Shown here: in pieces, positions 1,437 through 50,629 of the stretch
Position numbering within the stretch: the stretch's first letter is position 1
Layout of the letters: each line of letters starts with the position of its first letter
From: Bryoerythrophyllum caledonicum
Lineage: Eukaryota > Streptophyta > Bryopsida > Pottiales > Pottiaceae
DNA: 64,000 nucleotides
Direction of reading: 5' to 3'
Assembly (NCBI GenBank): GCA_963971425.1
Contig: OZ020518.1
Span: forward strand, 15,504,990 to 15,568,989
Notes under the pieces: generated by a model
The model's database searches: none
Seen by the model: the letters and a program-made list of their open reading frames with translations, nothing else
What the model was told of the DNA's origin: nothing
Position numbers and translations under genes: made by a program

Positions 1437-1571
1437 GAAAATATATTCTCTCCGTAATCAATTCTTTACCAGTTCAGTATTTGAACAAGCACAGCAAGCT
1501 AGTTCTTACTCTCTTTCGCAATTCAGTTGTCATTGCACCCCACCCTCCTTTAACACCGCCTCTGATAGTCG

Positions 1572-5914: not shown

Positions 5915-5956
5915 GCTCACCGCTCACCGCTCGCTGCTCACCGCTCACAAGATAGC
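5915..5956 (+). repeat. Right terminal inverted repeat of element copy A (GCTCACC heptamers)
   Basis: Tandem GCTCACC-type heptamers run into ACAAGATAGC. Read on the minus strand this is GCTATCTTG followed by GGTGAGC-type heptamers, matching the ends of copies B and C. The sequence to the right (GTCGCTGGTTGGGATGATG) is hAT transposase coding sequence, so the element boundary can be placed at 5956. Confidence 0.75.
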
Positions 5957-9295: not shown

Positions 9296-11266
9296 TGGTT
9301 TGCAAGCTATAGAATTTGCATGACTTCGTTGAAGCTATAGCTTGGAACATGTATGAATAAGTCCTCTTTGTAATCCATTTTACAAAGGTAACGTAAGATG
9401 TAATAGACATGCTTGCAATACTTCCATTGTCCCTTCTTTCCCAACGCCTCCGATTGCATCTTCAAAAAATCAGGGCATGAACACCCCGTGAAGGTCCGTG
9501 AAGGTGATGCAATAGGACTTGTTCTTTCCTGTATGAAGAGTGATAACGCATTCCCATCCGGGATACGGTGTGGCATAGAGGTTGGAGACGTAACAATTAT
9601 TCATAAGAGCGGCGCTTGACTACTTATTGCGTTGCTTAGTCGTTGGAACATCTATTGTTCTACGAATTGCATAGCCATTTCGAAAGGTCACTGTGGTAAA
9701 AATTCGGGTTCACTGGAACAGGGAAGTGTGACCACGGAAGCGGCATGTCCATAGACACTTGGAATTGTCTTCGTGGTGAAAGAACTCCATGCTGTTGCAA
9801 TTGGAAACTTGCTTCTTTCAATACTAGTACCTCCTGCACTGTTAAATTAGTGCCAAACTTCACAGGTCACGTCATTGGAATTGTTGGCCAATCAACCACA
9901 AACGGCTTTTTTGACCCCTTCACACAATGACTAATGTCCTTGGGGCAAAACCAGAAATTAGCTGAGACATTCCGTGGTGATCTATAATCTTTCTTCATAC
10001 CGGCATATGTGGGGGTTGGAGTCCCATGACTGCCACGCCCAACCTTAGTATTGCACTGCTCACCAGTATGAGCTGGCAAGGCTTGGCATTTTCAAGCAGA
10101 CTTTTTTGAGAGGCGGGCAATGTACCACTTCGATGGATCACAATCTGATTCCAAAACGGATGTTGTATGCTGGACTCTAAAGTCTTGTCTCGTGAAGGCT
10201 TCTTCAATACGCGCTCGAGTCACCCTTCAGCCATCACGAGGGATAGAGTAATTTACCATATCAAATCTGTGAGAATCATAGGCAGACCCAAGTGGCATAT
10301 CAAGCTTGCGCTTGGTGGACCCAAAAAATTCTGCTCCTTCTAAGTCGTCCGTCCTGGTTAGTAGATCCTCAGCCCCAGGAAAGTTCCTAACAGCCTCAGC
10401 AATGAGTTTAGGGTCACCTGAACGTTACGCCGACCGCAAACGAAGCGTACCTTTGTCCAGACCTTTTCCAGACGTGCCACCCTTCAACCATATCCGATAC
10501 ATGGTGATCTGCATGAAAGCACTGATAAGGTCGTCCACGGTTGCCGCGTACAAACATGTCATTGTATTTCTAGATTGTTGCAGCCACCGGTTATGGACTA
10601 TTTCTGCAAGATTGGAGGAAGGCATGTCGGATCTCTCGTCAAGCGTGAGATCATGAGAAGGTACAATAAATGTCATAAAAATGATCAGAAGTCTCTCTTA
10701 TATTGAACATGGGAGTTTTTTTAAATAATGGGTGATGAGGGCTTACAAGTTGCATAGCACCGCCCCATTGTCGATATCGGAAGTGCCAGAACGCCATCCA
10801 ATCCTCTAGAGCACGACAACCAGTTTTGGTTGTGGCACCGGAAATCATCCACCATGCACCCATTATGTTGTAATGTGCTTCACCCTCCTCTTGAGTCTTT
10901 GCGTTCTTCCAGATTTTGCAAAGGGTGATGTGTTGCTCTCTGAAACTGGGTAGAATGCTTCTAGTGGTGGCTCGCTGAAGACATTTGGTCCAATGAAATA
11001 AGCAAGTCCGTTGGTTGATCCCCCCCGACTTGCATACGCTTTACAAGGTCGATACCACTACCTAGACAATCAACAGACATCTTAAAAACAAAAACTTTAC
11101 CTTTAGATTGACCCGGAAACTTGTTTTTGTAATAAACTCGAACTTGGACAATTCTTTCAGATCCATGATGTCCAATTTCCTTCATTGACTTTCTCCGTAT
11201 TTTAATTAATGCGCGCAGATTTAATGCTGATTGTGGGAATCCTGTAGGTCGTGGAGACGAGGTCAA
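9296..11266 (-). pseudogene. Decayed MULE/SWIM transposase, element copy B
   Basis: This is a minus-strand copy of the 1572-5141 gene. From 11266 it begins near residue 430 of that protein (VFVFKMSVD, GIDLVKRMQ); the region holding the two catalytic Asp residues is deleted. CLFHW-like and WMAFWHFRYRQWGGAMQL segments follow (about 10980-10740). After the shared intron come the NLAEIVHNRWLQQS segment and an almost unchanged SWIM finger (CSCPDF, KYCKHVYY, 9307-9490). There are several frameshifts and stops. The final codons (LAN) run straight into the GC-rich element at 9295, so the natural end and left terminal repeat are gone. It is closer to copy A than to copy C. Confidence 0.8.
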
Positions 11267-11547
11267 TTTGAGGAGACTCCAGAGCTGGGATGGCGACTAG
11301 CGCAGGGAGTGACGACAATCATGTATGTCATACTCCACTTTGTTGTGAACAGTTCTCTTGATTTTGATTCCGCGGACTTCAAAACTGGACTGCCGTGGAT
11401 TTTCATAATTTCAAAAATTTCCCTGGTAGCCCGTATATACGATTATACAGGTAACAAAGTTATTGACACTTTCATATCCGTTGGGGTTTTGTATATTATC
11501 CCAACATTTGTCCTGTGAAGTTCATACTTTTGTTATGTTAGCTTTAC

Positions 11548-12330: not shown

Positions 12331-12659
12331 GAATATTCAAGGTGGTTCCATTTGTAATTCGACCACTATAATAGTATGCAGGCGTCCTTGTACGAGAGGT
12401 TCAAGGCTGCACATCTTAACACTAGTACCAAACTGGGAAAAAAAACCGCACTCAATTTGGACTTGCCGTTCTTTTGACCACGCTGTCGAAACAGTCAGCA
12501 TTGTTCCTGAATCGGGCTATCCCAGGGTTTTTGGCCATAACTCCCTCATTTTTGGGATTTTTTGGACGTGTAATATACCGTTGAAAGCGTCTTGAAAACA
12601 CTCATCCAACGGTATATTACACGATATATTACACGGTATATTACTTAGCATGGATAATT

Positions 12660-13110
12660 TGCGTGTTTTCAAAAAATTCAGCAACCCCTGAGAACCACCT
12701 TCTGATCCGAAGGTGGTTTTCAAGGGTCACCAAAAAATTTCGAAACATGGAAATCCGCGGAGCTTGAATGTAGGTTGCCATGGATTTCTGTGTTTTCAAA
12801 AAATTCAGTGACCCCTGAGAATGACCTTCGGATCCGAAGGTGGTTTTCAAGGATCACTGAATTTATTGAAAACGTGGAACTCTGCGGAGCTTGAATGTGG
12901 GCAACCGTGGATTTCCATGTTTTCAAAAAATTCAGTGACTCAAATAAACCACCTTTGGATTTGAAGGTGGTTTTCAAAGGTCACTGAATTTTTTTTAATC
13001 ACGGAAGTCTGTGGATTTCTTTGTTTTCAAAAATTCTGGTGACCCTTGAAAACCACCTTCGGATCCAAAGGTGGTTTTCAAAGGTCGCTAAAATTTTTCA
13101 AAACTCAGAA
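12660..13110. repeat. Tandem array of four long imperfect palindromes
   Basis: Four consecutive units of about 85-90 bp (near 12661, 12790, 12918 and 13020) can each fold on themselves. One arm is TTTTCAAAAAATTCAGTGAC, then ACCACCTTCGG; the centre is GGATCC; the other arm mirrors both. Spacers of 15-45 bp between units share GCGGAGCTTGAATGT. Upstream at 12560-12650 are related short inverted repeats (ACGGTATATTACACG). Confidence 0.75.
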
Positions 13111-13352
13111 ATACCCATTCCTAATATAAATTTGGTTGCAAGTGCATTTTTCTTTCTCGTACCTTAGGTCTTCTATGAAGCACCCAGTTCGTCCTGATTA
13201 ATTCTTGCCTTTCCATGCATAGTTCATATTCTTTGAAAGCGTGGTGATATGCATGATTTGAATCCTTGCGTTTTGATAGCTTCACTGATTATTGCTTGGG
13301 TGTTCATAGATTTAAGAGGAAGAGCTTCTAATAGTCTGTTAAATCGATGCAG

Positions 13353-16300
13353 ACTAGAGACGTGCACATGGGCTTCTCCTCAAGGGGTGATGGTAACAAT
13401 ATGGCTCTTCAAGTTTTGGAACTTGGGGAAGATCTAGGATTGAAGACGACCGAGCTGGCATTACGGAGGTCCCTGCGTGGGACTTCTTACGACGTCCTGC
13501 AGAAGTCTACTTACAAGGACACTCTTGTTACTGGCAATGGTGAGGACCGCAAAGGGAGTTCTGCTGAGTTGGTGAGTAAGTGCACGGACGCGGTGCAGAA
13601 AAAGAAGGTCTCGTGTCAAACCAGTTTCAATCGACTATTGGTAGTTGCCAATCCGGCTAATGGCGAAGACTTCTTCAAAGAGGTTTGATTTTTTAAGTTT
13701 TCTTACTGTCCACAATCCTATTCATTGTTTCTCATATTTTTTATTTCCAAATTAGTTTGAATGTATACCAAATTGATACAAACTTTGTGTGTCTTTCCTT
13801 TAGGTGTTGTGCCATTTTGACATTTACCAATTCAAGCCGGAGATGACATCGGAGAAGTTACAACTCTTTTGTACCACAAAGTTGCCATTAAAGTTCAAGG
13901 TGCGCTGGTGCAAGTGGTGGAACATGAACAAGTTGAGCAGGGAGGAGTATCACTTCCCATAATCTCCAACTTCGGACACAAGTCTTTCGAGGTGGATCGA
14001 TAGAGCTGCCTTCCGGGCTAGGGTAAGTTTCTCATATCATCGGATTTTAGTAAATGTAAATTTTCATTGCTAATATTTTCTTTGTCTAACTTGTTGTTTA
14101 GTTGGTTTCAAGTGGAAGACGAATGTGAGAAGAAATTTGCGGAGATTGTCCAGGAGGACAATCTTGTCATCCAGACGGAAGGACTTCCCAATCCCGTGAA
14201 AGGGATTGGAGCATGGATCAAATCGTGGTGCATCAGGTTGTAGGACAAAGCGTTTTCTGCCCAATGTATGGATAATGGAGAAGAAGATTGGGTTCACGAA
14301 GACCGAGGAGTTTCTAACGCAGTCCGAGTGTGAGAGATAGATGAAGAGGGCATTGCTTTGCTATTTCTGGAGAGAGCTTGTTGCCAAGGGAGCCATGCAG
14401 CCCGATTAACTTCCGATTCGCTTGAATATGTGGACGGATCCCACTGATGTCCGGTGCATCTTCACGGAGGCACAGTTGCGACGCTTCTCTTGTCACCACT
14501 TGGAGCAGTGCCATTGGTTCTTGGAGCTAAAGGATTATGATCCTACCCCATGCGAGGGGATGCAACAAAGGTCTCGCTGTGACTTTTTATCCGTCTCAGA
14601 TGGTGATGACGAGATGCTTCCTCCATCGGTCCCCTCAATGGCTGCGCAATTGGATGTAGAGTTGTCTCCAAAGGAGAGAGAGGCAGCAGCTGCAAAGGCG
14701 GCAAAGGCGGCGGCTAAGGCGGCAGAGAAGGATGCCCTTAGGGTGGAGAAGGAGACCGCCAAGACACTTAAGAAGGAAGTCAAGGAGAGGAACAAAGAGC
14801 TGGCACCGTTGGTGTTGAGGGAGGGACCCGAGAAGCTCATGGCTCAATTTGGGGTGGGTGCATCGCTTGCCATTCCTACTGCAGTCGCATCGTTGCAAGG
14901 AATTTTGCCCTCAGCCAGCAGCCGACCCTCAGCATTCATTACGAAGCCTTCGCAGATAGTGTACACAATCCCAGTGATCGAACAAGTTGATTCTTATGTT
15001 GGAGTGTGGGTGATGAGTGAGAGTGCCCTCTCTATCATGCCGCTCTTTGACGATACCTCCGAAGATGCTGATTACCCCGCGGTTTGGACCGAGTTGCGCC
15101 AGTTTGCGAAGGCGCATGTTGGCTCTAGGCTCCGAACCTTGCGTGGAGATCCTTGCAATCTTGGTTTGGTGGACATGGTGATCATAGACGTGCCGGAGGG
15201 GTTGCCGGTTCGAAGGATTTATTGTAGCACTAAAGTGCCTAGTTGGAACGAGCATCCAACTCAGCTGAACGAGAGAGGCAAGAAGGAATCCCCTTTCATT
15301 TACCGTTGTTTTAAGATGGCCGGGGAGCTGCTTCGTGACGGAGCGCCGCTCATTGTATTTTATCCGGACTCGAAGTTCATTTCCAATGAACTTCTTGGTT
15401 GGGCAGACTGGGCAGAGTTCGTTGAGGAGACAAAGTGGTTCGCCATTATTGGCTTGCCACTGTCGCGCGATGGGCAGCCCAGGCGCACTCACAAGTGCTT
15501 CATGGTGAAGTGTTTTGTGAGGAAGTCCGCGTCAACAACCCCTTTTTCTTTCTACGACAAGGTGGAGCTGATTCGTGAAGGGATTTAGCTGTCCTCGGAT
15601 GGTCACTTGACCAATCCTATCACATAGGACACGCTGACGATGAGAAGAACCACCATGGAGCCATGGCGGGGAGCACATGAGAAGTCTACAAACCTCATGG
15701 AGGCTTTGATTGACCTTTGCACCCTGGAGGACGACGTAGGTTTTGATTTGACAACATCTACTGGTAAGTATCCTTACTACGTCAAATTGTATTATCTTTC
15801 ACTATATTACAACTCTAGTGTTAATTATTTTGTTTATCTTGTAAAGGGGCATCAATCAAGGCTTGCAAGGCTCTAAAGCGCCACATCTTTGCATTGGAGT
15901 CTGACCCGAATTTGGTTGAGGGGGTCCTCCGACCCTTGATTTCGAGATCGGTGGAGGTGGAGTCAGCAATGGCACCAGCACTGCAGGAGGAGTCTCGTAA
16001 GCGCCCTTTGGAGCTCAATGACGATGAGCTAGAGGTGAAGACGGCTTGCAAGAGAACTTGTAAGTAAGTTCTCTACTTCTTTGGTGAATTTTGCATCAGT
16101 GTGATTTAGAGAGTTTGTAATTTTATTTCTAACTTTAACAACATAATTGCATTGGTTTTTTGCAGTTGGTCGAGGTCATTGATGGCTTCACCATCAACAA
16201 CGCGGGCGGGGATGCTGTTAAGGTTGTCAAAGCTCGTTAATAGCCCGCCGCGGACACATGATTTGGCTCCTTGGGATGGTGGTGTTGCAAATGCAATGAC

Positions 16301-16457
16301 AGCACAATCATCCCCTCCAAATGTTCCTCGCGCACCCCGTCATAGGTCCATCGCAAGGCTGTTCGTAGGTGATGAGGCTGATGGTAGTGGGTCGAACAGT
16401 AGTGCCCCTTGTTTGGACGAGGATGACTTTGTTGACTTTTTGGCGGAGGATTTGTAA
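13353..16457 (+). pseudogene. Decayed ParB-methyltransferase-like gene, element copy B
   Basis: Exons are about 13353-13682, 13804-14022, 14102-15763, 15847-16063 and 16166-16457, all with GT-AG borders. The protein matches the complete paralogue at 38440-45503 throughout: EDFFKEV, EMTSEKL, KVRWCKWW; then C, LEQCHWFLEL; then the methyltransferase core LVDMVIIDVPEGLPV, PWRGAHEKS, FDLTTSTGASIKACKAL with HIFALESD. Three introns sit at the same codons and phases as in the paralogue (after FRAR, inside TSTG, and before the last exon). The ParB-like part was not found. About six in-frame stops are all TAA or TAG, each one C-to-T step from CAA or CAG, plus one frameshift near 14240. The catalytic tetrapeptide position reads DVPE rather than a (D/N/S)PP(Y/F/W) motif. 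Confidence 0.75.
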
Positions 16458-18504
16458 TTCCTCTATTTGGATTGTTTTTTAAATTTTATATGGAGCCTAC
16501 TTTTGTTTGATATCATCTTTGTAATTGTTGGAGTCTTTTTGTGCGTATGTTGATGTCCCATCTTATATTAATTAAAAACATATGGAATGATTTAACACAT
16601 TACCGAACAACTCTATTCGATTATTCAATCCATCCATAAACCAAGGTATTGTTGTGTACTACATGTAGACAAAACTGAGTACTGTACGAAATTCATAAGA
16701 AATTGTAGTAATTTAGAGAATTCACCACGTCTTTTATAGTACGCTGTGCAACATGAATGTGTTTTTGTGCTTTGTACCATACGTAATCGTCGATATCAAA
16801 CACTTTTTATTGACGTATATCAAATTCTCAATTAAAGGTGGTTCCCACACCACGGATATCACCTAGGTATTATATGGATATCGCCCCGGTATTATATGGT
16901 TATCATCTATGTATTGTAAGGGTATGGCCTTCCATTAATCCTTTTAATTTTCCAATTATTGAGAGACTTCCATTCTCAATGAAATAAATACAAATACGAC
17001 CAATGACTAATTCAAACGTGTTTTGTTACCCTAACCTAAATACCAAATCCATAAGTGCCCCTTTCATTTTGAAGAAAAATTGTTGCTCTAAGACCATCAA
17101 GTTGTCAACAATTCAGAGTTCAATATGTCCTAATATTGTAGAGTTTTACATGATTTTTACATATGTCAAGATAGACTAAATATAACCTACGGCCAAAGGT
17201 GTTGCTTTCAAATTTTGTAAAAAAATTGCGGAAAAAAAACAATAAATTCAGTGCTCACCGCTCGCCGCTCACGGCTCACAAGATAGCAGTCCTGATGCAC
17301 GGTCATATGCTCTGTCCTTTAGGGGTTATGACATTTATCATCATCAACAAGCTAGTTGTCAAGTTCCTGTTAACACGCGCAAGGTTCTTCCCCTCATGCA
17401 ACGCCCCTCTTCCGATCATTCTGAGGAGTGTTCTTTTCCAATGCTCTTTCTTCATGAAACTCTTTGCATTCTCTCCTACAACTTGGGGTTTTGCTTCAAG
17501 TTTTCTTGATTATTTCCTTGCTCTTTGCTTGGTTATTGTTCTTTCCTCCCCTGCCACTTGTCATTGGTCTGGCCTTTGCCTATGGCTCTTGTTGTGTTTG
17601 GGCTTTCTACCGGATTGCTCGTAGCACTTAGTCTTCATTGGCTTTCTGATTTCTTATAATATATCCCAAATCCAATCTTTTTAGCAAAAAACAATGTTCA
17701 CTTCAATAGTAAAACTAAATAAGTATGCACAATGCGGATGTAGTTGGATAGGCATGTACAAAAATTACATTTGTCCATAGTTCTAGAAGTTGTGATTTCT
17801 TTGTTACAACCATCCTAATTTAAGGTTATTTTGTGTATATTCAAAGCCGGATTTCTCTCAAAAGGGTATAAATGGTTCAATCTCGATCAAGCCTTGTATG
17901 ATACCAAAACATGTTACTAGTAGCAATACCCAGTTGTTATCCTCTTTCTATACAGTTGCATATTCCCTAATCTCGTGCGTGCCTTTATATGGTTACATCA
18001 GACAAGATAAAGGTAACTTTTCTACATTCTCAACAGGTGAACCGTGACACATAATGAGTGAGAAATAGTTATTTAGTCAGAAACTACAAAGTTGTTTGTA
18101 GTGTGATATTCAGTGACACCATCACAACATCTTTATTAGTTCAAACAAAGCACAACCATGTGATCTAGGGTTCATCTAGAGAGACTCGGGAGTAGATAAG
18201 AAATCCCCTCTCGCACCATCGTTCGATTGGTACCAAATCCTAACTTCGGCGGTGGGATTGAAACTTTCAGATTTCAATTGTATACAATACATCAGTTCCA
18301 ATCCTAGTGCCACACCAAGCTCATCATGCCTGTTGAAATATATCAGGGTGTTCTCTATTCATATACAATTGAACACCTGATAGGTGGTAGATAGTACGCA
18401 ATCATGAGAGTGGCAAACAACAATGACATTCTCACGCAGTACTCGACGAACCAGAACGGGATTTGAGCAAGCTCAAGAAACAAATGAAGAGCATGGCTTT
18501 CTTG
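16458..18504. other. AT-rich non-coding sequence
   Basis: Apart from the terminal repeat at 17253-17287 I see no supported gene. The ORF at 17199-17624 begins inside that repeat and has no recognisable domain. Confidence 0.4.
17253..17287 (+). repeat. Right terminal inverted repeat of element copy B
   Basis: GCTCACCGCTCGCCGCTCAC followed by GGCTCACAAGATAGC, preceded by an A/T-rich tract, matches the ends at 5915-5956 and 50479-50562. It lies about 800 bp beyond the last exon of the decayed methyltransferase-like gene, on the side expected for that gene's end of the element. Confidence 0.7.
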
Positions 18505-37712: not shown

Positions 37713-37994
37713 TGACAGGTGAAAAGGAGAAGTATCTCCTTGGATAGGTGAATTAAAGAGTGGAACATAGATAAATGGTTTTTTTTTTTTTTTTTTTTTG
37801 GAGACATGTGGAGTTTTAAGAGTCAAGGATAAGCAAAGCATAATTCAAATGTTGGAGAAGGTGAAGTAAGACTACATAATATTAGTACATGACTAGCATG
37901 TAGCACTAGTAAGAATCGAAAGAGGATATTTGAAAAGTAGAGAAGAGTATATTCGAATGTTTTGCAGAGTTGGTCAAGATAGAGAAAGGGGATT

Positions 37995-38053
37995 GCTATC
38001 TTGCGTGCGGTGAGCGGTGAGCGGTGAGCGGTGAGCTGTGAGCTGTGAGCGGT
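37995..38053 (+). repeat. Left terminal inverted repeat of element copy C
   Basis: GCTATCTTGCGTGC then six to seven heptamers of the GGTGAGC / TGTGAGC type, followed by an A-rich tract. It is the inverse of 50479-50562. Confidence 0.8.
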
Positions 38054-38439
38054 AAAAAAAAAGTAAATACGGAATAAGAAATTCAAAAAGTAAAAAAAAA
38101 AGTGAATTTTTTTACGAAGTAGACCTATATCCGTGAGAAAATACAGTTTTTCTACTGAAAACTGAGGACCCATGGCCGAGGATAGTAGTGAAAGACTTTC
38201 AGGGTATCAACGGGTATCAACTGCAATCAGGGTATAAACGGGTATGTAAAAGACACTACTATATCTAATTGCCTAGCACATGAGCTTAATTGTAGTTCAG
38301 TAATTGTGATAATTGTAGTGAAAAATTAATTAAGATGGAGAATGGATGTAAAAGAAAAAACAACTGCCGCATTTAAAAAGGAAGGAGAAAGGTACAGTAG
38401 AGACGATACACCATGCATGAGTCTCAAAATTGCACGGTC

Positions 38440-41400
38440 CTATGCATAAGAACTGCATGAACTATCCGGAGAAGACAATAATACTACGCGTTCCTCGACT
38501 GCCTCTAAGTCTAGGAAACCTTCAGCACGGATATCGGAAGAGGAGGAACTAGAAGCGGTTGAGAGAGACAAAACAGTAGCAAGAAGTACAGCCGCATCCT
38601 CCGCATAAGATGGCAGTAGAAAACTTCTATTTGGAGAGGTGGCCACTGCAATCAAGCTGCAAACATAGAAGCAAAGGCACATCAGAGAATGAAGAAGATG
38701 TTCAAATCAATGAAGAATAACACCGAAATGACTTACTTACTTAGTCTATTCCTCTTTGCGACCTTTCGGATGGGAGCTTCGTCATCTAGAGAGTGCTGAA
38801 CATTGGCACTGGGACCAGCGGTCGGTCGTGGAGTCTTAGGTGTGAACAAGGGCCTCAACAACGCGTCAAAGATGGCTTTATCTGCTTCAAAGGCCACCAG
38901 ATGCCGTCCGATGGAACGACAAGCGCGAATAGAATTTCCTGGAATAAAACAGATGGTCAGAGCAAAAGAGGAAACTAAAATTGAACTTCAAAGTATTAAA
39001 AGCAACACCATACCAGTGGAAGCAAAGGCATCAACGATGACATCTTCCGGCTTGGTTAATCCTTGAAAAAGAATCAAGAAGAAGAGCACACTTCTTTCTC
39101 GCCCTCCACGCCAAGGAATAGACCCTCTCATGGATTGTGAATCCTTGTCAGTATGATTAACTATTACGTCCGTCTCTTCAAGGCTCCAATCCGTTGGAGG
39201 AAGCTCGAGATTCGAATTGAATTGAAACGTGTCCACTGGATTCGAGACCCGCACGAAGAGAAAAACTCTGAAACGCCGGGTCTGAGAAAACAAAAACAAA
39301 TACAACGTGGAAGATAAAATTAACATACTGGATGAAAGAATGAAGGGACTGCGCAAATGACACGAACTGGAAGATAAAGACAAACCTTCATGGAAGAACT
39401 GATAGGCGAGGCCAGCGGCATCTCATTCACACCCCACCACTCTCGAAGAAGTTTGAAGTCGTAGCATGCAGCATATGATCGAACATCAGAGCGTACACTG
39501 ATGTTCTCAGGAGAAACCACAAGCACGGATCCAGTGTCATGAAGAAAGGCGTCGCAGAATTCAAAGAAAGATTCAACCGACTTCTCACTATAGACATTCC
39601 AAGGAGGAATGTCATTTGTATCACGAGAGATTGAAGGCACGTAGAGCCCGTCTGGAAAGTCAGCAAACATTAAGTTAAAGCCACGATGAGCGCACGTGGT
39701 GCTTCGCGCCTCGTTTGCGGACCCACTCACAACCTATACACGCAGTGAAAGGAAGTTAGAACAATGTAAACAGATTTTGCGGAAACAGTTGGTAAAACAG
39801 CAAGGAAGTACTTATAGATTTTGACTCAAGATTTGAAAGACGCTCTCAATATACTGCTTGGTACAGCAATGCCGGTGACGGCAGTGGGCTCTAAGGAGTG
39901 CAGAAAAAATCGAGTGAAAACAAATATACTACCAAGACGAAGCAAAGTAAATACCTTTTGCATGAATTGGTTCAAGCGAGCAAAGGCGGGGTGATTCTTT
40001 CCGCCATTCATGACATCGTGGATTGAGAGATTCTCAATCCGGATTCCAACCGGAACTGTGGCAGATGTCGGTGAAATCGAATCTGGAATAGCCTTTCTCT
40101 TCAGCAAAGGGGCAGAGGGCTCGGAATGGAGAGAAGGCTGCATCGTGACATCCGGAGCTGGATCGTGAACTGGTGACGAGCTTGAAGGAGACTCCTCCTC
40201 AACGAGTACCATCGGTGCAGGCGCTTGGACCTCAATTACGTCAGCATCGTCGAAGGGAGATTCAACGGCCTGCTTCCCCTTGCTCGCCTTCCTCCTCACT
40301 CTCGTCATTACAGCAGGCGTTGGGGGTCGGCTACCTCCACTCTCAATACCCTTCAACTCAGGCTCAATTGAATTACGCAAATCAAGATCAAAAGAGGGAG
40401 GTCTCTTGATTGGGCAGTCCAGATACCACCCGCATCGCTCCCAGTGCGCTTGCCCCCACATAGCCTTGATCCCCTTCGACATCATGCAGTTTTGATTGTC
40501 CTTGTCCAAATAACCAGCAAGAATAGGAGGAGGACGAGCCATCGCCCTGCAAGGAATTAGAACATTCTTAATGTACCTATAGACCGTACGGCGAACAGCT
40601 TCAGCCAAACCGAATTGCCGTTTAGGTGCATAATTCTTGTGAACTCCCTTGGGCTCCTTGAACTCCCTGTAGAATGCAGTGTCCCAAAGTTGAATTCGAT
40701 TCTCTTCAATATAATCATCAATCCTAGGAATTGCTGGACCGTTCAAAGGCTCGTAGTTAACTTCCACCGACAAATCCGATATCGCATCGCCAAACAGTTG
40801 ACTTCCTTCAGAAGATAGCTGCAAAGATATAATCATTCACCGTATCAGTATCTCATGAAGAAATAAACAATCTTCTCGCAACAAGTAAATACTCCAGTTC
40901 CAATACCTGCGCCCACCATGTAGCACGGTGAAGCCAGTCTGGAAATTCACTGTCTGGAAAACGAATCTTCGGAAATCGCAGTGCCTCGCGGAGGGGGCCA
41001 TCCCGATTCCAGCGCTCGAGCCACTTAACCTTCATTTCAGCCTCCATAGCTGACGTTGCAATCATGTGGAGCTTCTCCTGGGTCATCTCCGAATCCTCGT
41101 CGTGAGACTCGTAATGTTTCTTCACCTCTTCCAGAAAGCGGGGAGTGTGCTTCGGATCCGCCGTGGGAAGCTGCTTCCGCAGCTCAGAACTGCAATGCAG
41201 TTTTGTTCTCTTAACAGCCTTGGAAACGAAATCAAGGGCATTCGATGAGGTCCAATCAGCAGGATTTGGAAAACGCTCCGAAACCTTTACTTGAGCCTGT
41301 GCTGCAGCATCTCCAATCTCTTGCTGCAACCACAGCGCAAGTGCATTGATAAGAATTATTCTAAACAAAACTCGGTGGTACTAGATCATTAAGGAGTATG

Positions 41401-44400
41401 CAGTGCACATAACCAAAATCTGGATCATGATCATATGAGAAAAGGCTGTACCTGGTAAAGAATGGAGCACAACGATGGCTCAGAGAGAGTATACCAGGTA
41501 CGTTTCGCAGACTTCTGTTTACTATCAGCTGCTTCAAGTTCCTTCTGGGATACAAGGTTCTCGAAAAACTTTAAAGGTTGAGAACCGATACCCTGAACAC
41601 GATAAATTTTATGGACAAGGTTTGTAGTCACATGCGATTTCTGATTCCTCCTGTGGACATAAAATATGATGTCAATACAAGAAACCCTACAAAAAATATA
41701 TGCTTGAAAAGCTGTTTATTTAAAATAGGCTTACCAATTGACCTGATGAAGTGCAGTCAGTAGGGTCGCTACATTTCCTTGAACGTCGAGTAGTACTGAC
41801 TCAACTGCTACATGCCATAGTGGGTCATCGGAATGATCTCGGTCGATAATTGGTCGCCATGCCTGCAACCGGTGGTTGCCATCCCAAACATGAAACATTC
41901 TTCCGGAAAGAAAGCGAAGGTCTTCATCAGCCTGAAGGACGTTCTCAAATGCAGCATTCGCCTCAGCCCAACCACTGTTCCAGGTAGAAGTAATCTCCTC
42001 AGTGACATCAACAGTATTTCCTACATCATTCTGAAGCGCAACGTAGAATACTCCAGCTCCCTCCATGTACCCATTCTTCACAAAGTGCGAGGCCAACGAC
42101 ATGACATCGTTTCTAAGAAATGGCCTGACAATCGGAAGGGCAATCATCCTACAGAGGGGGATTTGGAGCCGAGATTTCGACCGCGGCTGAAAGCGAAGCT
42201 TGTCAAGGAGAGCATTGGTATTGACCGATTCCCTGACAACGAGGTCATTCATCTGCTTGCCAAGGTCAGCCAGAGATTCTGGGGACGTCTTATCGGCTTC
42301 GTCCTCATCTTCTTGCTGATCAATATCTGCAGTGAAGGTCACACACTCAAAACAAGCAACTCACAAACCATGAAAATAGAATAATTATAATGATGAAACA
42401 TACCATCCGGTTGAGTCAACCGATCCTCTTCATCTGATGCGTCTTCATGATGACCACTGTTGCGTTCACAGTTCTCCATATCTGCGTCTGCAAACTCAAT
42501 TAACAACAATGAATTTCAACGAATATTGACATAACAAATAAAGGACAGACATCGACCTCATGTAGACAGCAGTGCCGTTGCCGGCAGTGGAACTGCGAGG
42601 CATTTCTCAACAGAGTGACCGGCTTCAGAGTGATGACGGCAACGACATAAATAATTAGAGAAAAACCAATCCTGGAGCAATGCCGTTGACGGCAATGCCC
42701 AAGATTGTGCTCGATTAGAATTGCAGCACCAAGAACTTCATTGGCACTGCCGTCAACGGCAGGGCTTCGGTGATGGAAAGAAAAAAAAATGAACTGACCA
42801 CTTCACGAGCACTGCCGTTGCCGGCAGTGCTCCAATGAAGTCTGATCTAAAAAATGTCAACCATATCACGAGCACTGCCGTTGCCGGCAGTGCTCCAATG
42901 AAGCCTGATCTAAAAAAATGTCAACCATATCACGAGCACAGCCGTTGCCGGCAGTGCTCGTGGAGTGGTCTGAATTACTATTTCAGTTTGCTGAATCAAA
43001 GCACTGCCGTTGCCGGCAGTGCTCATGAATTGCTTGGTGAGAATTGCGACACCTGGCACTTCATGAGCACTTTCGGCTACGGCAGTGCTTCGATTCAGCA
43101 AACTGAAATAGAAATTCAGACCACTCCACGAGCACTGCCGGCAACGGCAGTGCTTTGAACAAAGCAGGTAATCATAAATAGCAAATCAGATCACAAGCAT
43201 TGCCGCTGCCGGCAGTGCTATTGTAGTGCTAGGTGAGATTTCTGACACCAGTCACTTCATGCACAGAGCCGGCAAAGGCAGTGCTGCGAAAGAGGAAAGT
43301 AAAGAGAATATTGACCACTCCAAGAGCACTGCCGGCAACGCCATTGCTCTCATTAGAGCAAGTATAAAAAAAAACAAATTATTTCTTGAGCTCTGCCGTT
43401 GCCGGCGCTTCGAATGAGGAAAGATTAAAATATAATGACCCCTGTACAAGTACTGCCGGCAACGGCAATGCATGAAACAAAGCAAGTTTTAAAAATTATC
43501 AAATCATTTGGTTAGCACTGCCGTTGCCGGCAGTGCTCTTGATGTGCTCGGTGTGATTTGTGAAACCCGGCACTTCATGAGCACTGCCGGCAACGGCAGT
43601 GCTTCGAAGGAGGAAAGATTGAAATAAAATGACCCCCGTAATAGTACTGCCGGCAACGGCATGCTTGAAACAGAGCAGGTTTAAAAAGACAACAAATCAT
43701 TTCTTGAGCACTACCGTTGCCGGCATAGCTCATGAACTGCTCGGTGTAATTTGTGACACCGGGCACTTTATGAGCTCTGCAGGCAACGGCAGTGCTTCAA
43801 AGGAGGATAGATTAAAATAAAATGACCCCTGAACAAGTACTGCCGGCAACCGCATTCCATGAAACAAAGCAAGTTCTTTCTGTCAGCAAATCATCCCGTC
43901 AACACAGCCATTGCCGGCAAAGCTCATGAACTGCTCGGTGAAATTTGTGACACAGGGCACTTCATGAGCTTTGCCGGCAACGGCTGTGCATTCAACAGAC
44001 CAAGTTTTTAAAATAGAAAATCATTTCAAGAGCATTGCCGTTGCCGGCACTGCTCATAAAGTGCTCGGTAAAAATTGTGACACCGGGAACTTCATGGACA
44101 CGGCCGGCAACGGCAGTGCTTCGTAGAAAGAAAGATGAAAAAATATACCGACCACTCCTTGAGCACTGCCGGCAACGGCAGTGCTTTAAACAGTTCAAGT
44201 GATAAATTATCGCAGATCAGATCACGAGCACTGCCGCAGCCGGCAGTGCTCATGTAGTGGTCGATGAGATTTGTGACAACGGGCACTTCCATGGCACTGC
44301 CGGCAGCGGCAGTGCATCGAAAAAGCAAAGTTTAAAAAAAGACCAACAACTCCGACTGCATTGCCGTTGCCGGCAATGCATCGTACAGAGCAATTTCTAA

Positions 44401-45503
44401 AAAAAAGCAATCCACTTCACGAGCACTGCCGTTGCCGGCATTGCTTCGAAGAAGGCCAGTACTTAGATATGCGGTGATGAGGTCGGTGTCATCACAGACA
44501 CCGGCTATCTTGGGTAGCACTACCGCCAACGGCAGCGCGGCATGGACGCCCGTGACACCACCATCACGATCCTACAGCTTAGATTTTTCGAGATTGAAAA
44601 ACCCTAACCTAGACGTACTTTTCATATTCACCAATGTGTATTGGACTTACCTTCCGCGCTGCAATCTGTTGTAGCGTTGCTCATCGATATCGCCATGTCC
44701 TCAATGTCCCTTTCCTCGCACTTGTCTTGCCCTGCACACAGACACGCACAACTGTTTAGAATCGGATTTGTAGATTGTCTTCTCTGCATTGTAATATCAG
44801 TCTAACTCGCAATCTGACCCTGACCTCGGAGAAATCTACGCAGACAACAAGGATCATAATACCCTCGCACAGCTCGATGGACCTTCGACGCAAAGACCAG
44901 CGAGAAATACGATTGATGTGTGTTAACCTAGAAGTGGCCGCCTGTGGGTTTAGTGCGCATACCCTCGCGAAGCAATGTCGAAATTCCTCCGTGAGGGGGG
45001 AACTGATCACTACCTATACCATCCGCTGTACACTCAGCCTTTCATAGCCAACCTAAACCTAGGTGCTAATTGAGTGCAAGAAAGAGTGAAATTGACAATA
45101 CAACTTATCACTCCATCGACATTGCTTTTAGGCACGAATGATACTAATTCTCTATAGACCATGATAATTGAAGTAATGATTCACCCAACAAAGAACTAGA
45201 TAATGACTTCTAAGAAATACCTGAATCGGGGTCCTGCGCTGCAATTCCATCCAAATGAATTCCACTGGTTTCCAGATGTTTAATCTCTGCAGATAGACGG
45301 CTTTCAGGAATTGATATCAAACACTCCTTACTGGCGAAAGTCTCTTCTGCATCTAAAGCGCAATCCTCTTGAAACTGCAGTGTTTTTTGAGTCATTCCAC
45401 AATCCCCCTCAATCAGTTTTGATACCTTCCTCCTCATCTCTCTAGTTCTTCTCAAAGTTCTAATGGAACTGAAGTAGAGTTGTGACTTTCTTCTTTTTTT
45501 CAT
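38440..45503 (-). CDS. ParB-like plus adenine-methyltransferase-like protein, 11 exons, element copy C
   Basis: Exons 45503-45221, 44731-44651, 42487-42404, 42326-41735, 41650-41452, 41323-40907, 40818-39955, 39733-39386, 39281-39014, 38938-38737 and 38656-38440 have GT-AG borders and agree in phase, giving 1184 aa. The N-terminus is basic, then acidic (to about 170). Residues 203-306 resemble a ParB/sulfiredoxin fold (IPLCRMIALPIV; VWDGNHRLQAW with DGNHRL at 298-303). A middle part has EMTQEKL and HWERCGWYLD. The C-terminal part follows a permuted adenine/cytosine-N4 methyltransferase: FNLMFADFPDG (DFPD at 865-868, where DPPY-like is usual), PWRGGRERS (1012-1020), VDAFASTG (1040-1046) and RACRSIGRHLVAFEAD. 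Catalysis is doubtful; DNA or AdoMet binding is possible. It is expected to be nuclear and to partner the transposase. The exon model is mine, without transcript support. Confidence 0.75.
39864..39890 (+). repeat. Stray hairpin of the array family in intron 7
   Basis: GCAATGCCGGTGACGGCAGT is a variant of the intron-2 hairpin, alone inside intron 7 of the same gene. The readable frame across it ends shortly after, and splicing straight from exon 7 to exon 8 keeps phase. Confidence 0.5.
42568..44540. repeat. Array of about 30 GC-rich hairpins in intron 2
   Basis: It lies wholly within the intron 44650-42488 of the ParB-like gene. Each hairpin has arms GAGCACTGCCG and CGGCAGTGCTC around loop TTGC, in either orientation, on average about 65 bp apart. 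From about 43190 onward the orientations mostly repeat forward-reverse-reverse, and the three kinds of spacer recur in that order (one with GCTCGGTGTGATTTGTGACA, one with AAAATGACCCCTG, one with AACAAATCATTTC), so the basic unit is about 195 bp. Spacers are repeated, so this is not a CRISPR array. The intron RNA would fold into a row of strong hairpins. Confidence 0.9.
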
Positions 45504-46105
45504 TCTTCACCACATTCACTCGGTTTGATCCCGACCTCTATGTTTCCAGTATATATGCACGCTCCATTTAATTTCTCTTCCTTATTACCTGCCCTGGAGT
45601 GGCATTTAGTTCTGTGGCTGCTGCTATATTTAATGGCCAGCCCTGGTCCAAGCATGATCAATTTATCGACTCAGACAAACTGTTCTAGGCCGTCAATTTA
45701 CTAACAGATAACAGGTAAATTCCTTAAAGTAAGCCGCCATATATATATCTTTGTGCAGATTCGCTGCCAACAGAATATCTTTCTTGATCATGATTTTGAT
45801 TGAACGAAATCTAAACCACCCTAATTCTTAAGAATATTGGACATACTGTCTTAGTTGATACTTACTTTTCCGCCCATGCCTGCACATTAACGACAAGTAA
45901 TAAATAGTGCTGTCAACTTGCTTTTCTCTCTCATAAAGTGAAGAGATCTTTATTGCCCTCATTTTTACTTTCCCGGATAAATTAAATTTCATCTATATAT
46001 GTGCTAACTTTGTTCTTTACGTTAACCTCTCAAATCACGATAACTTAGCGCATGTTGTTGAGTTTTGCCTCCCCTCTCCCTTTATTGATTTCTTAATGCT
46101 CTGCA
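45504..46105. promoter_or_regulatory. Divergent promoter region of the gene pair, copy C
   Basis: The 602-bp gap lies between the two start codons. TATATA at about 45550-45557 sits roughly 50 bp upstream of the minus-strand ATG; CTATATATG at 45993-46001 sits about 105 bp upstream of the plus-strand ATG. A shared control region is inferred from layout only. No heptamer or hairpin motif was seen here. Confidence 0.45.
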
Positions 46106-49100
46106 ATGGTTTCTTTGGGTCAGTTCCCCGATACTGTAGTTGTTCATGGAGACTCCACAGGAGTCCCTATATGTTTTGCTGTTGCAGATGACGGATTGGC
46201 CATGATTAGTGGAGTTAGATTAAGTCAGCGATTTCGAATTCAGGAGGGGTCACTTCATATTGACAAGGAAGAGTTTGATCCAGATACTGGAGAGCTCACG
46301 CACACTGTCGCTCAGGCAACTATTTCCCTTGATCACGGAAGTGTATGGTCGCTTAAGTCTGGAAGGTATCGAGTGTACGGTGTGAAGGACAGTCTTGAGA
46401 GAGTCCCTTGTAGTTCCTTGACCCCAAAGCAATCGACGACCGCAACCCAAGTTACACCGTTGCTTCAGAATGTTAAACTAGAGCCTCCTAAGAGCGTAGT
46501 GCACTTGCTTAGTGATGACTCTGATTGTGATTCTCCAAAAGTTCCGGCTTCCAGGACGCCTGTGGACGGTTCATCATTCCTTTGTAATACTGCACCTGCC
46601 CTGTCCAATGCTGCTGCTCCTAGTAATTCTGGGCCTCCCCTTACCCCCTCAGCCCCTATTAGCATTGTGGACTGCTTGCGAAGTGTGACTACTAGGTCCC
46701 GATCCAAATCACTCTTAAGCAAAGTCGACTTTAATTCTATTAGAATTGAGAAGGTTGACTTTTTACCTGTCTCTTTCGATGGAGACGTTATATACGAACT
46801 TCCAGTTCTAGAAAGGGGATCTCAATCAACGCAGGCCGGATTGTTGCATGGTATGGATAAAAAACACGATGGACATGCGTGGACAAGGACAGTGACAACT
46901 CATGTTGCAAATGACTCAAACCTTACGTTTAGGATGTCTTCGTGTCTGGGACATCTTCGGTGCGATAATCCAAACTGTGACTTCCTAAAGAGAGAGCATA
47001 GGGCTTTCCTTTTAAATGAAACCGAGTGGGAGGGAACTTCGTCCTCAGTGTTTCGAGTGAGTGAGGACCCTCCAGCAAGTTCGACTGTTGTTTGCAGACT
47101 ATGTAGAGTTCCTCCGTCTTGTCATAGTACTTGCGCAGCCAAAATTTACTATGTTATCGGACCGGAGAGTATGACTAGGGGATGTGTGCATCTTGGTAAC
47201 CACTTGCACCCCGTTAAGTTAGGGAACTGTAGAGTTTCCTCCACAAAGCTTAAGCAACTTATCGGGGAACAAGTGGAGAGGACACCCTCAGCTACTAACT
47301 CAGCCATCATTCTTGAGGCCAGCAAGGAATTCCTTGGAGAACAGTTACTGGGCCCGGACGGGGTTCAGCAGAAGCCCCTTCATATGGAGGAACTAGTTCC
47401 GGTGTTAGAAAAGTTCAAACAGATGTCATCGGCGAGCATTCGAAATGACGTCTCTTCATTCAGGTACCTGCGTAGGTTTGGTGTCATGGACAGCATCACG
47501 AAACTCAGAGGTTTGAGCAAATGGGCCTTCGTTCAAGAAAATAGGTTTCCAGGTCAGGGGGCGGACTCTGACAAGGTGTTCGTATTCAAAATGTCCGAGA
47601 TTGGTCCTGCTAGCGGGGTTGATTTGGTGAAACGAATGCAGCGAGGAGGAGACTTAGAAGAATGTTGGATCATGTTTGATCATGTGAAGCGAGTGAAGGG
47701 TTGGACAACTATGGGTTGCCATGTTTACGATTCTACGTACTGTCGAGTGCTGACCATTGCGGTTTGCGATATGCAGTCTGAAGATGTGGCAGCGCAAACA
47801 GTTTTTTGGAAAAATTTGAATGCAGTTGCTTTTCGTCACGATATTACCACTGTAAACTTCAAGGGATTCATGGCAGACAGCGCGCAGGCAAACTGGAACG
47901 CGGTGCGGACTGTTTATGGCTCCGGCGATTCCGCTATCCCGATGGAAAATCGTGAAAGAACCTGCCTTTTCCATTGGACACAATCACTGGAGAAACATAC
48001 AAAGGCGGATATAAGAGCAGACCTCCAAGAACAACATCGTCAACTTTGCAAACAGTACAAGAACGCAAAGTCCATGGAGGAGGCCGAGGCAAAGTATTTG
48101 GCGATCAAAGCTTGGTGGCTATCATCTGGGGCATCCACAAATGAGGGTGTGGTGCGGCTGGACTTGTGGCTTGCGTTCTGGCACTTTCGGTACCGTCGGT
48201 GGGGAGGTTTTATGGTATCGGTACGTAACTTTTCTAGACCGTATTTTGTTTGGTTTTCTGGCTGGCGTACCTTAGAACACACCTCATTTTGTAGTTGTGA
48301 TCCATAATAAGTCTGCCGTTGCCGGCAGACCTAGATAGTGGGTCCTCCTTGTCGCTTTTATATTTGGTTATGATTCAGCCGTTCGTGGCACAGTCATCAA
48401 ACATCGTTTTATTTCTGTGAATCTTTTAAAATCATTATCCTATTTGAACCTTCCTCTTTTTTCAGGCGTTGTCCGATTCCGAATTAGCAGAAATGCCTTC
48501 TTGCAATTTAGCTGAAACTGTGCACAACAAGTGGTTGCAACAGTCTGGGAAACGTGGAAATGATTTGTATGTGGCCACTGTTGATGACATGGTTCGCGCT
48601 TTCTTGCAAGTCGTGTCATGTTATCAATACTTGAAAGGTGAGCGACCAGGAATGGGTCCTGGGAAAGAAGAACTTCGCCTTCGAGTCGCTCAACGCACAG
48701 CTCATCGCTCCGGAAACTCTAAGGCATTTCTTGAAGCGCTCTCCGATTTGCCAGGAGCTGCTGAGTTCTGCACGAGGCCCCCGCATTTGGAAGGCGAAGA
48801 GGAGTTCTTATCTCTGAAACGAAAGGCAGATATTCCTCCAGGTTCAGAGTTTGACTCCCATCGTCCGGACAGAATTAGTGTATCCCGCCCTAGGGTGAGG
48901 ACCCGTGCGTCAGAGAAGAATACTCTCCATGTTGCGGATGAGGATATTGACTTTCCAGGCGGTTCCCAGAAGGATGTAAGTGTTCCTCCGAAGATGGCAA
49001 GAGCATCTTTTCGAGTTCTTCATGTTAAAGCAGTCATGGAAACATCTTGTGACGAAAGGGAATGGCATATTTCAAGGCTTCCGAAAACATCAGCGAAGAA

Positions 49101-49911
49101 ATGTTTTGCTCTTCAGTCTCTTACTGGGAAGAAGTGTGTCGCTCGCATTGTCCAGGACAATAAAAGTACTGCAGCACCAACATACACAGGAATGATGAAA
49201 AATTATAAGAAGAAAACGTTGGTCAAGATGCAGTTTTTTTATTGTTCTGATGACATCCATCGTTGTGTATTGGGAAGTAGAAGGGAGTGGGTGGTTTCTA
49301 AGCCTGCAGTACCTGATGTGTGGCCCGTAAAAGCTGGTACCTCTCTAACAAAGGCAGAGATTCTATCCTTAGAGGAGGCCGGTTTCCGACTTCCAGAGCG
49401 AGTGATGCTTTCCCCTCGGAAACTGTTTACTGAGGATGGTTCAACACTTGATTTGTCTTCATTTTCCACCCCGGCAAACCCTGACGAACATCCAAAGCTC
49501 AGATTTGGCAAGAACATTCGTCGCAATCCGAAGGCCCCGACAACGAAACATCAGAATACGTGCCCATCCGCTCTTTCAATTGTTGGGAAAGTTTTGCAAG
49601 TTTGTATGATTCCTGCCCCAGCGTTTGGATGCGTTCTCTCCTTCCAATCAAAAAACATTTCACAAGTATCTGTCTACATGATATCAATCAGCCAGTTTCC
49701 AAGTTGTAGCTGTCCGTTCTTCAAGGAAATGTGCAACAAGTCCCTTGGCAAGCGCCCTCAGTATTCGAACTGTAAACATCTGTACTTTATATTTACCATA
49801 CTATGTGGGTTGGATCCGGAATTGGATGCATTTATGCACGCCCCTAGTTTTAGCTTCAATGAGATAAGACGTGTTTTGCAGCTATTGCTCATGAAGCAAG
49901 CTAGTGTTTAG
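46106..49911 (+). CDS. MULE-like DDE transposase with SWIM zinc finger, element copy C
   Basis: Exons 46106-48220 and 48466-49911 join across an intron at the same place as in copy A (TCG|GTACGT and TTTCAG|GCG, phase 0), giving 1186 aa with no stop. It shares with copy A a Cys-rich part (CLGHLRCDNPNC; CRLCRVPPSC), the core FDHVKRVKGW, VCDMQSED, FMADSAQANW, CLFHW, and the SWIM finger CSCPFF with NCKHLYFIF. The proteins are clearly related but well diverged, yet both are whole, which argues for selection or repeated activity. An earlier donor at 48216 would drop two residues. It is the likely mover of the 12.6-kb element, since it lies within its terminal repeats. Confidence 0.82.
48311..48330. 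repeat. Single hairpin in the transposase intron, copy C
   Basis: GTCTGCCG and CGGCAGAC around loop TTGC form a perfect 8-bp stem. Core and loop equal those of the intron-2 array of the neighbouring gene, but the outer arm differs (GTCTGC instead of GCACTGC) on both sides together, so pairing is kept. Confidence 0.65.
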
Positions 49912-50478
49912 TGAAGCATTGGACTAGGTGGACATTGTACGTATTTCTATCAGTACAAAAGGATGGTGAGACTACAGGGCCACCATCATGATATGAAAAG
50001 ACCACTTTAGTCAACATTTCGTACTCTGCATCGTTTTTAGTCAATTTGTCTTTATTTCATATTGTCTTCAACCTTACTATCATATATTGCATACTTTGTA
50101 CAGTTTTCGTTTTTGGTATTTTTTTTTTTTTTGAGCTTTGGCCCAAGACTTATCATACTAGCAACATCTCCACATGCTGGGACGTGGATGATTTTTTTTC
50201 ACCACTTCATCCAACTGTAACCCTCTTGAATATTGGTATGCACACCATGATCCAGGTAGTTTAGGTTCCTCTCACACCGTGCTTAGTACTAATTTTCACC
50301 AGCATTCTTAATTTACACGGTAATAGGTGTTTGATTACAAACCTTGTTTCCTTTGCTCTGCATTCGCATCCACGGTCATAGGTGCCTTTCTATGCACTAT
50401 TTTTACCCTATACCGCATTTTGCAACATAAAAAAAACCCTACTTTTTGAAAAAAAGTTAAACTTTACTCAAAAATTTT
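49912..50478. other. Non-coding right tail of element copy C
   Basis: AT-rich sequence with no gene. The last 70 bp have A-runs and CAAAAATTTT next to the heptamer array, as in copies A and B. Confidence 0.45.
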
Positions 50479-50562
50479 GCTCACTGCTCACCGATTGCTG
50501 CTCATTGCTCACTGCTCACGTGTCAACGCTCACCGCTCACATGCCACCGCACGCAAGATAGC
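50479..50562 (+). repeat. Right terminal inverted repeat of element copy C
   Basis: GCTCACT, GCTCACC and diverged heptamers, then CACCGCACGCAAGATAGC. The last 18 bp are the exact inverse of 37995-38012. Confidence 0.8.
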
Positions 50563-50629
50563 TTCGTCCGATAGAGAAAAGTTGAGCGCGAGAAAAAGAA
50601 TATTTGCTGTTGTTAAGAAGAGACACATC

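What the first reader, a model, noticed from the sequence alone, without database searches (positions are those of the whole stretch)
37995..50562. A two-gene transposon pairing a MULE/SWIM transposase with a ParB-methyltransferase-like protein
The element has inverted ends GCTATCTTGCGTGCGGTG plus heptamer arrays and holds two intact divergent genes: a DDE/SWIM transposase and a protein with a ParB-like motif and a methyltransferase-like fold. The same head-to-head pairing appears at 9296-17287 (both decayed, with conserved intron positions in the partner) and probably at 1-5956. Three of three transposase copies have such a neighbour. MULE elements with a second gene are known (MuDR), but I know of none with a ParB-methyltransferase partner.
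Basis: partly seen in the sequence, partly recalled or inferred. Interest (0 to 1): 0.95.

Follow-up and report, generated by a model that had tools for sequence, protein, structure and literature searches.

The report
Two-gene jumping element with palindrome array
This is an apparently complete plant-type jumping gene that carries, besides its transposase, a large protein descended from a bacterial-type DNA methylase, and a striking row of about 31 similar palindromes inside that gene that may be the protein's own docking sites.

Summary
The element is real and now better delimited: 37988-50569, flanked by a 10-bp direct repeat lying 7 bp outside the 18-bp inverted ends. Both genes lie inside and are intact: a two-exon transposase (1186 aa) and a divergent 11-exon partner (1179 aa). 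A related transposase at 1578-5141 (47% aa) is also open, and a decayed copy at about 9298-17294 keeps both genes head-to-head; so the pairing is seen in two of three copies. In the third the partner is not verifiable, and one end of the decayed copy was not found. The partner's C-terminus is homologous to class-beta adenine methyltransferases, but its catalytic motif reads DFPDG/DVPEG, so it may be inactive. No profile search supports ParB; only a DGNHR motif suggests it. New: the partner's second intron holds 31 palindromes (AGCACTGCCGTTGCCGGCAGTGCT), mostly 60-67 bp apart, with poorly conserved spacers; two more lie in other introns, none elsewhere in the window. The layout resembles the VANC anti-silencing targets of Arabidopsis VANDAL elements. 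I propose that the partner recognises this array to protect or license its own copies; that step is inferred. No host genome was available.

The parts
37978..37987 (.). left target-site duplication GATAGAGAAA
   Evidence: chance test
50570..50579 (.). right target-site duplication GATAGAGAAA
   Evidence: chance test
37988..50569 (.). whole element C, 12,582 bp, between the direct repeats
37995..38012 (+). 18-bp terminal inverted repeat, left (partner side); 7 bp GGGGATT lie outside it
50545..50562 (-). 18-bp terminal inverted repeat, right (transposase side); 7 bp (read inward GGACGAA) lie outside it
38007..38053 (+). heptamer array GCGGTGA x6.7
50478..50540 (-). degenerate heptamer array
38440..45503 (-). 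partner gene, 11 exons, 1179 aa, reading frame intact. Exons 45503-45221, 44731-44651, 42487-42404, 42326-41735, 41650-41452, 41323-40907, 40818-39955, 39733-39386, 39281-39014, 38938-38741, 38645-38440
   Evidence: model made by hand; 10 of 10 introns GT-AG, no internal stop
41735..42326 (-). exon 4 with the DGNHR (ParB-like) motif; no profile support for ParB
38741..39733 (-). exons 8-10: class-beta methyltransferase-like domain; motif IV position reads DFPDG, motif I position DAFASTG
42488..44650 (.). partner intron 2; 31 quasi-palindromes (consensus AGCACTGCCGTTGCCGGCAGTGCT), cores at 42573-44534, 28 of 30 spacings 60-67 bp
39870..39883 (.). single palindrome core in partner intron 7
48314..48327 (.). 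single palindrome core in the transposase intron; outer arms altered symmetrically (GTC/GAC)
46106..49911 (+). transposase gene, exons 46106-48220 and 48466-49911, 1186 aa, intact; MFDHV, FMADSA, CLFHW and CxC..CxH motifs conserved with A (roles assigned by recall)
1578..5141 (+). element A transposase, open, 47% aa identical to C
5939..5956 (-). element A right end; its left end is outside the window
9298..11171 (-). element B transposase remnant (stops, internal deletion)
13350..16460 (+). element B partner remnant (stops); outer limits read by eye, homology in pieces at 13536-16055
12657..13117 (.). element B array of four roughly 100-bp inverted repeats centred on ACCACCTTCGGATCCGAAGGTGGT
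17270..17287 (-). element B right (partner-side) end

Best explanation
C is a complete two-gene cut-and-paste (MULE-like) transposon. Shown: it is bounded by inverted ends and a 10-bp direct repeat, so both genes very probably moved as one unit; both reading frames are intact; the transposase protein is conserved with A although synonymous sites are saturated; the partner ends in a homologue of class-beta DNA methyltransferases with a changed catalytic motif; and the partner gene's intron carries a conserved palindrome array. Inferred: the transposase binds the terminal heptamers and inverted ends and moves the element. The partner is no longer mainly a methylating enzyme. It is a sequence-specific DNA-binding protein that recognises the palindromes in its own introns and in the transposase intron, marks the element's own copies, and keeps them open against host silencing (the role of VANC in VANDAL elements) or licenses them for transposition. 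The array gives many sites per copy and can change by tandem duplication, so protein and target can diverge together.
For: Inverted ends and direct repeat. Intact genes. A and C transposases 47% identical in protein (529 of 1136) with fourfold sites saturated, 53 of 230. Methyltransferase homology: hhalign of a C+B alignment probability 95, score 59.8, against a best of 26.0 in 30 column shuffles (C alone 90.9, B alone 68.9); below curated cut-offs or weak, but in the same place: NCBIfam CcrM E 6e-4, PHROG methyltransferase 9e-4, Pfam PF01555 0.0055, DpnA in the PDB 0.011. Palindromes: mean pairwise identity 0.80 against 0.37 and 0.43 in the flanking spacers (31 array sites); 20 exact TGCCGNNNNCGGCA in the window, all in element C, 0.01 expected; the 33 sites kept lie in introns of the two genes (coordinates; introns are 3,769 of 12,582 bp). 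Half-site changes are mostly unpaired (68 cells) rather than wobble (7) or compensated (7), as expected for a DNA site. The VANC precedent puts target motifs as tandem repeats in the VANC21 and VANB21 introns and upstream of VANA21 (passages of PMC5735166).
Against: No binding or expression data. No homology of the partner to VANC domains or to ParB. Element B's repeats are long inverted repeats whose centre is only slightly better conserved (0.85 against 0.77 and 0.74, 4 copies), so co-divergence of site and protein is not shown. The visible part of A shows no such array, although most of its partner gene would lie outside the window. The palindromes also fold as very stable RNA hairpins (4 tested), and doubly changed paired cells slightly exceed permutation (7 against a mean of 3.3, p 0.03). 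The recognising protein could be the transposase or a host factor.
Confidence: 0.4

Rival explanations
1. The partner is a working DNA methyltransferase (6mA or 4mC) that methylates the element to regulate transposition or silencing.
For: Class-beta homology with the order motif IV then motif I (motif order by eye). Part of the SAM-binding motif is kept (D-x-x-x-S-T-G in C and B).
Against: The DPPY position is DFPDG in C and DVPEG in B. The conserved palindrome core of C holds no GATC.
Confidence: 0.15
2. The partner is a transposition cofactor like the second gene of MuDR, acting at the ends; the palindromes are unrelated to it.
For: It lies inside the same ends in C, and a decayed relative lies beside the transposase in B.
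Against: Gives no reason for a conserved palindrome array in its intron.
Confidence: 0.2
3. The palindromes act as RNA hairpins in the introns (splicing control or small-RNA source), not as DNA sites. This does not exclude the other readings of the partner protein.
For: Stable hairpins, -14.3 to -22.4 kcal/mol for the 4 tested; slight excess of compensated changes.
Against: 68 one-sided breaking changes against 7 wobble and 7 compensated; the five innermost pairs keep the consensus on both sides in 27-31 of 33 sites.
Confidence: 0.15
4. The array is an intronic minisatellite or hairpin-repeat insertion without function in the element, and the partner is a captured passenger gene.
For: Tandem arrays are common in this window.
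Against: Spacers have diverged while the 24-bp palindromes have not; an exact core sits alone in the transposase intron; the partner is intact over 1179 codons and a relative recurs in B.
Confidence: 0.1
5. A ParB/parS-like clamp system: a ParB-fold partner loads at the palindrome array and spreads, aiding copy segregation or clustering.
For: DGNHR motif; sopC of plasmid F is twelve 43-bp repeats serving as centromere (passages of PMC9178275; binding by the ParB protein SopB to inverted repeats recalled).
Against: ParB profiles do not match: 0 hits up to E 10 with filters off; hhalign score 10.5 against up to 21.1 in 60 shuffles. I saw no ParA-like gene in the element.
Confidence: 0.08

Closest known systems
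VANDAL21 (Hiun) MULE with VANC, Arabidopsis (PMC5735166, passages; PMC10398659, abstract and section list)
   Same: Transposase plus extra genes; tandemly repeated target motifs in introns of the element's own genes
   Different: VANC proteins have DUF1985/DUF287 domains, not found here. One review calls VANDALs non-TIR MULEs (PMC13317346, passages), though a table in PMC6446971 (passages) gives VANDALs TIRs of 46-174 bp. Here the ends are an 18-bp inverted repeat, the partner is methyltransferase-derived, and the repeated site is a 24-bp palindrome
MuDR (mudrA/mudrB), maize (PMC6446971, passages; direct-repeat length and gene orientation recalled)
   Same: Two-gene MULE with terminal inverted repeats and a short direct repeat
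   Different: mudrB is described as a protein of unknown function; no match to it was tested here. The MuDR genes are convergent (recalled); here they are divergent
Class-beta adenine methyltransferases (DpnA, CcrM, phage 7201 type)
   Same: Homologous C-terminal domain (weak single hits)
   Different: Catalytic motif changed; part of a 1179-aa multi-exon protein
Plasmid F sopC / SopB (passages of PMC9178275; site details recalled)
   Same: Tandem array of repeated sites beside the gene for a DNA-binding protein
   Different: No profile support for ParB here and no ParA-like gene seen
N4CMT of bdelloid rotifers (PMC8885841, abstract and section list)
   Same: Bacterial-type amino-methyltransferase in a eukaryote, linked to transposons
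   Different: N4CMT is a captured gene that deposits 4mC at active transposons; here the gene is carried by the transposon itself

Membership tests
MULE (Mutator-like) transposons | 8-11 bp target-site duplication | tested here: met
   10 bp, but 7 bp outside the exact inverted repeat
MULE (Mutator-like) transposons | terminal inverted repeats | tested here: met
   18 bp exact
MULE (Mutator-like) transposons | transposase matches the MULE / Transposase_mut profile | tested here: inconclusive
   No PF10551 hit for A or C; A hits PF00872 at E 0.36 only, C not at all
MULE (Mutator-like) transposons | DDE residues with a CxxH motif, and a SWIM finger | tested here: inconclusive
   Motifs conserved between A and C, CxC..CxH also in B; their roles are from recall. 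Pfam SWIM E 0.19 (C) and 6.1 (A), below cut-off
Class-beta DNA methyltransferase | homology by profile | tested here: met
   (probability 95 over 62 columns around motif I); single-sequence hits are weak
Class-beta DNA methyltransferase | catalytic DPPY motif | tested here: not met
   DFPDG in C, DVPEG in B, ADIPYN in two phage relatives (alignment of this part by eye)
ParB/Srx domain | profile match | tested here: not met
ParB/Srx domain | fold | tested here: inconclusive
   Model of exon 4 had mean pLDDT 36.7
VANDAL/VANC anti-silencing system | tandem target-like motifs in noncoding parts of the element | tested here: met
   Repeats present; that they are targets is not tested
VANDAL/VANC anti-silencing system | partner related to VANC (DUF1985/DUF287) | tested here: not met
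   The only Pfam hit of the partner up to E 10 is PF01555
VANDAL/VANC anti-silencing system | loss of methylation on expressing the partner | not testable with these tools
   needs plants

The most novel reading that the evidence does not exclude
A eukaryotic DNA transposon lineage took up a bacterial or phage DNA methyltransferase gene and turned it into a self-recognition protein that reads an iterated palindromic array in its own introns. This would be a second, independent invention of sequence-specific anti-silencing, built from a methylase instead of a VANC protein.
Probability: 0.25. Interest if true: 0.9.

Novelty: new variant of a known kind. Interest (0 to 1): 0.62.

Why it matters
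In the passages read here, transposons that defeat host silencing by reading their own repeats are described from one group of Arabidopsis MULEs. A second system with a methylase-derived protein and a clean 24-bp palindromic target would make the question of how such systems arise directly testable, and would offer a new sequence-specific tool for epigenome work.

Tried and rejected
Host genome: none held, so copy number, polymorphism and co-occurrence of ends and genes could not be counted. Relatives of the partner (first 1111 aa) and of transposase exon 1 in viral contigs: none. The one genome-contig scan was not used. Structure prediction of exon 4 and of B's methyltransferase region gave mean pLDDT 36.7 and 35.7; no fold search was made. 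ParB: no ParB match in Pfam, PDB, PHROGs or NCBIfam, none with a 40-sequence profile drawn from loci L086-L127 with filters off, and hhalign below its shuffles. The tblastn hits of the ParB region in phages (3 records, E 2-7) and plasmids (6 records, E 5-8) are chance-level; two of the nine were looked at and neither carries a ParB annotation. Attempts to get MULE (1 record) and Transposase_mut (5 records) sequences for comparison found none. 'IPPW' in the partner was first taken for motif IV; alignment with B and the phage relatives moved motif IV to DFPDG/DVPEG. Rfam at gathering scores: 0 hits; tRNAs: 0. Papers: in the searches (0 papers; 1 paper; 6 papers) no listed title or abstract start is about a MULE with a ParB or methyltransferase partner; those listed papers were not opened. 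One search listed 13 papers, on FAR1/FHY3 and other subjects. The library is open-access only, so prior description cannot be excluded.

Rows dropped: one search listed 39 sites with up to 4 mismatches in the element; 33 were kept (31 in the array, 39870 and 48314). The 6 dropped have 4 mismatches each: 4 lie in partner exons, 1 between the genes, 1 in the transposase intron. By my own arithmetic about 9 such sites are expected by chance in the element. One search printed 21 of its 27 palindromes (those with G+C of 0.35 or more); 10 of the 21 lie in the array.
Full report
What is there. The window holds three related elements, here A (right end near 5963), B (about 9298-17294) and C (37988-50569). 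The exact 18-bp inverted ends of C are as reported. Seven bases outside each lies GATAGAGAAA, a 10-bp direct repeat. A scan of 200,000 random position pairs gave a repeat of 10 bp or more at any symmetric offset of 0-12 in 0.055%. This is what a target-site duplication looks like and makes C one insertion unit holding both genes. The outer 7 bp differ between the two ends (GGGGATT, GGACGAA), which is unusual for a MULE and leaves the exact tip open.

Genes of C. The transposase has two exons and 1186 codons. The partner, on the other strand, has 11 exons with ten GT-AG introns and 1179 codons without an internal stop (the model was made by hand). The starts face each other across 602 bp. A's transposase is also open. 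A and C share 529 of 1136 aligned residues (47%), with first and second codon positions 58% and 64% identical, third 32%, and fourfold sites 23% (53 of 230). Synonymous sites are saturated while the protein is kept, so the copies are old and selected, not a segmental duplication. A and B share 79.6% over 1,719 bp of the transposase, a further 146-bp transposase piece, the end and one 54-bp piece.

B and A as tests of the pairing. B's transposase lies on the minus strand and its partner on the plus strand, again head-to-head; both carry stops, and no homology was found to about residues 520-619 of the transposase or to most of its N-terminus. The partner homology runs in pieces between residues 433 and 1108 of C (the first piece weak, E 0.09). 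The intron that splits motif I lies at the same codon and phase in both (C 39013-38939; B 15764-15846), and the intron after C exon 6 also matches; B probably has one further intron near 13690 that C lacks (my reading). No left end and no DGNHR exon were detected in B. In A only about 900 bp of the partner's place are in the window, with no detectable homology. So the pairing is shown in two of three copies.

What the partner is. Its residues 1031-1071 match PF01555 at E 0.0055, below Pfam's cut-off, and the same region matches CcrM in NCBIfam at 6e-4, far below that model's cut-off, a PHROG DNA methyltransferase at 9e-4 and DpnA in the PDB at 0.011. A C+B alignment against 15 phage adenine methyltransferases (dereplicated from 76 recovered among 84 loci) gave hhalign probability 95, E 4e-8, score 59.8; the best of 30 column shuffles scored 26.0. 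C alone gave probability 90.9 and B alone 68.9. The match covers 62 columns around motif I; the rest of the domain aligns only by eye: ADIPYN in two phage proteins corresponds to ADFPDG (C) and IDVPEG (B). The motif order is that of class beta (recalled), but the catalytic aromatic residue is gone, so I read it as a probable ex-enzyme. The ParB claim rests on MFHVWDGNHRLQAW. No library supports it, nor does a purpose-built profile (40 sequences, filters off), nor hhalign (score 10.5, shuffles up to 21.1 in 60). A structure model was uninformative. I therefore drop ParB from the name and keep it as a possibility.

The palindrome array. Intron 2 of the partner holds 31 quasi-palindromes with cores between 42573 and 44534; 28 of 30 spacings are 60-67 bp, the other two 47 and 94. 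The 24-bp palindromes are 80% identical pairwise, the flanking spacers 37% and 43%. With up to 2 mismatches, 33 matches (one place counted on both strands) fall in the window, all inside C, with 0.15 expected; the exact arms TGCCGNNNNCGGCA occur 20 times, all inside C, 0.01 expected. Single copies lie in partner intron 7 (39870) and in the transposase intron (48314). The 33 sites kept are all intronic (coordinates); six lone sites with 4 mismatches were dropped, four of them in exons, a number no higher than chance by my arithmetic. Changes within the palindromes mostly break symmetry on one side (68 cells), with 7 wobble and 7 compensated pairs (permutation p 0.03 for the last). That fits a DNA site read by a dimeric protein better than an RNA hairpin, although the RNA hairpin is stable. 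B has four roughly 100-bp inverted repeats upstream of the recognisable part of its partner remnant, with a different palindrome, but the centre is only slightly better conserved than the flanks (0.85 against 0.77 and 0.74), so they are weak support.

How it probably works. VANDAL21 of Arabidopsis encodes VANC, which removes silencing from copies that carry its motif; the motifs form tandem repeats in the VANC21 and VANB21 introns and upstream of VANA21, and vary between related elements (PMC5735166, passages; PMC10398659, abstract). C has the same arrangement with unrelated parts. I propose that the partner binds the palindromes and protects or licenses its own copies. The binding, the protein that binds and the effect are inferred.

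Limits. The host is probably a land plant (Copia with Retrotran_gag_2 and DUF4219, hAT with DUF659; inference). No relative was found in viral contigs. Paper searches (listings only) showed no such MULE, but only open-access papers were searched and Repbase was not available.

Noticed in passing
5810-8791 (+): hAT-type gene with DUF659 and a dimerisation domain lying immediately beyond element A's right end; A may have inserted into its 5' part.
   Followed up: no
22899-27130 (-): Copia retrotransposon in separate reading frames with gag, zinc knuckle, integrase and reverse transcriptase pieces.
   Followed up: no
18561-19291: Nested tandem arrays (30, 42, 60, 71, 120 bp periods) built on CTTGTGCATATTACAA.
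   Followed up: no
35973-36336: GC-rich tandem repeat (GGGCCGGGCGCGTAC) that runs into the window's only run of N, 200 bases at 36137-36336.
   Followed up: no
11540-12440: Broken reading frame inside element B without match in Pfam (158 aa tried) or in element C's partner; perhaps another insertion.
   Followed up: partly
52040-52969 (-): RNase H domain fragment, E 3e-6.
   Followed up: no
L041/L092 (L089), L062/L090, L040/L091, L018/L097: In 4 viral records a ParB_N-like gene lies within a few kb of a DpnA-type adenine methyltransferase gene (in L090 the ParB_N match is below cut-off): a possible neighbourhood source for such fusions.
   Followed up: partly
37988-37994 and 50563-50569: The 7 bp between the direct repeat and the exact inverted repeat differ at the two ends of C, yet partly resemble the same-side ends of A and B (by eye).
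   Followed up: partly
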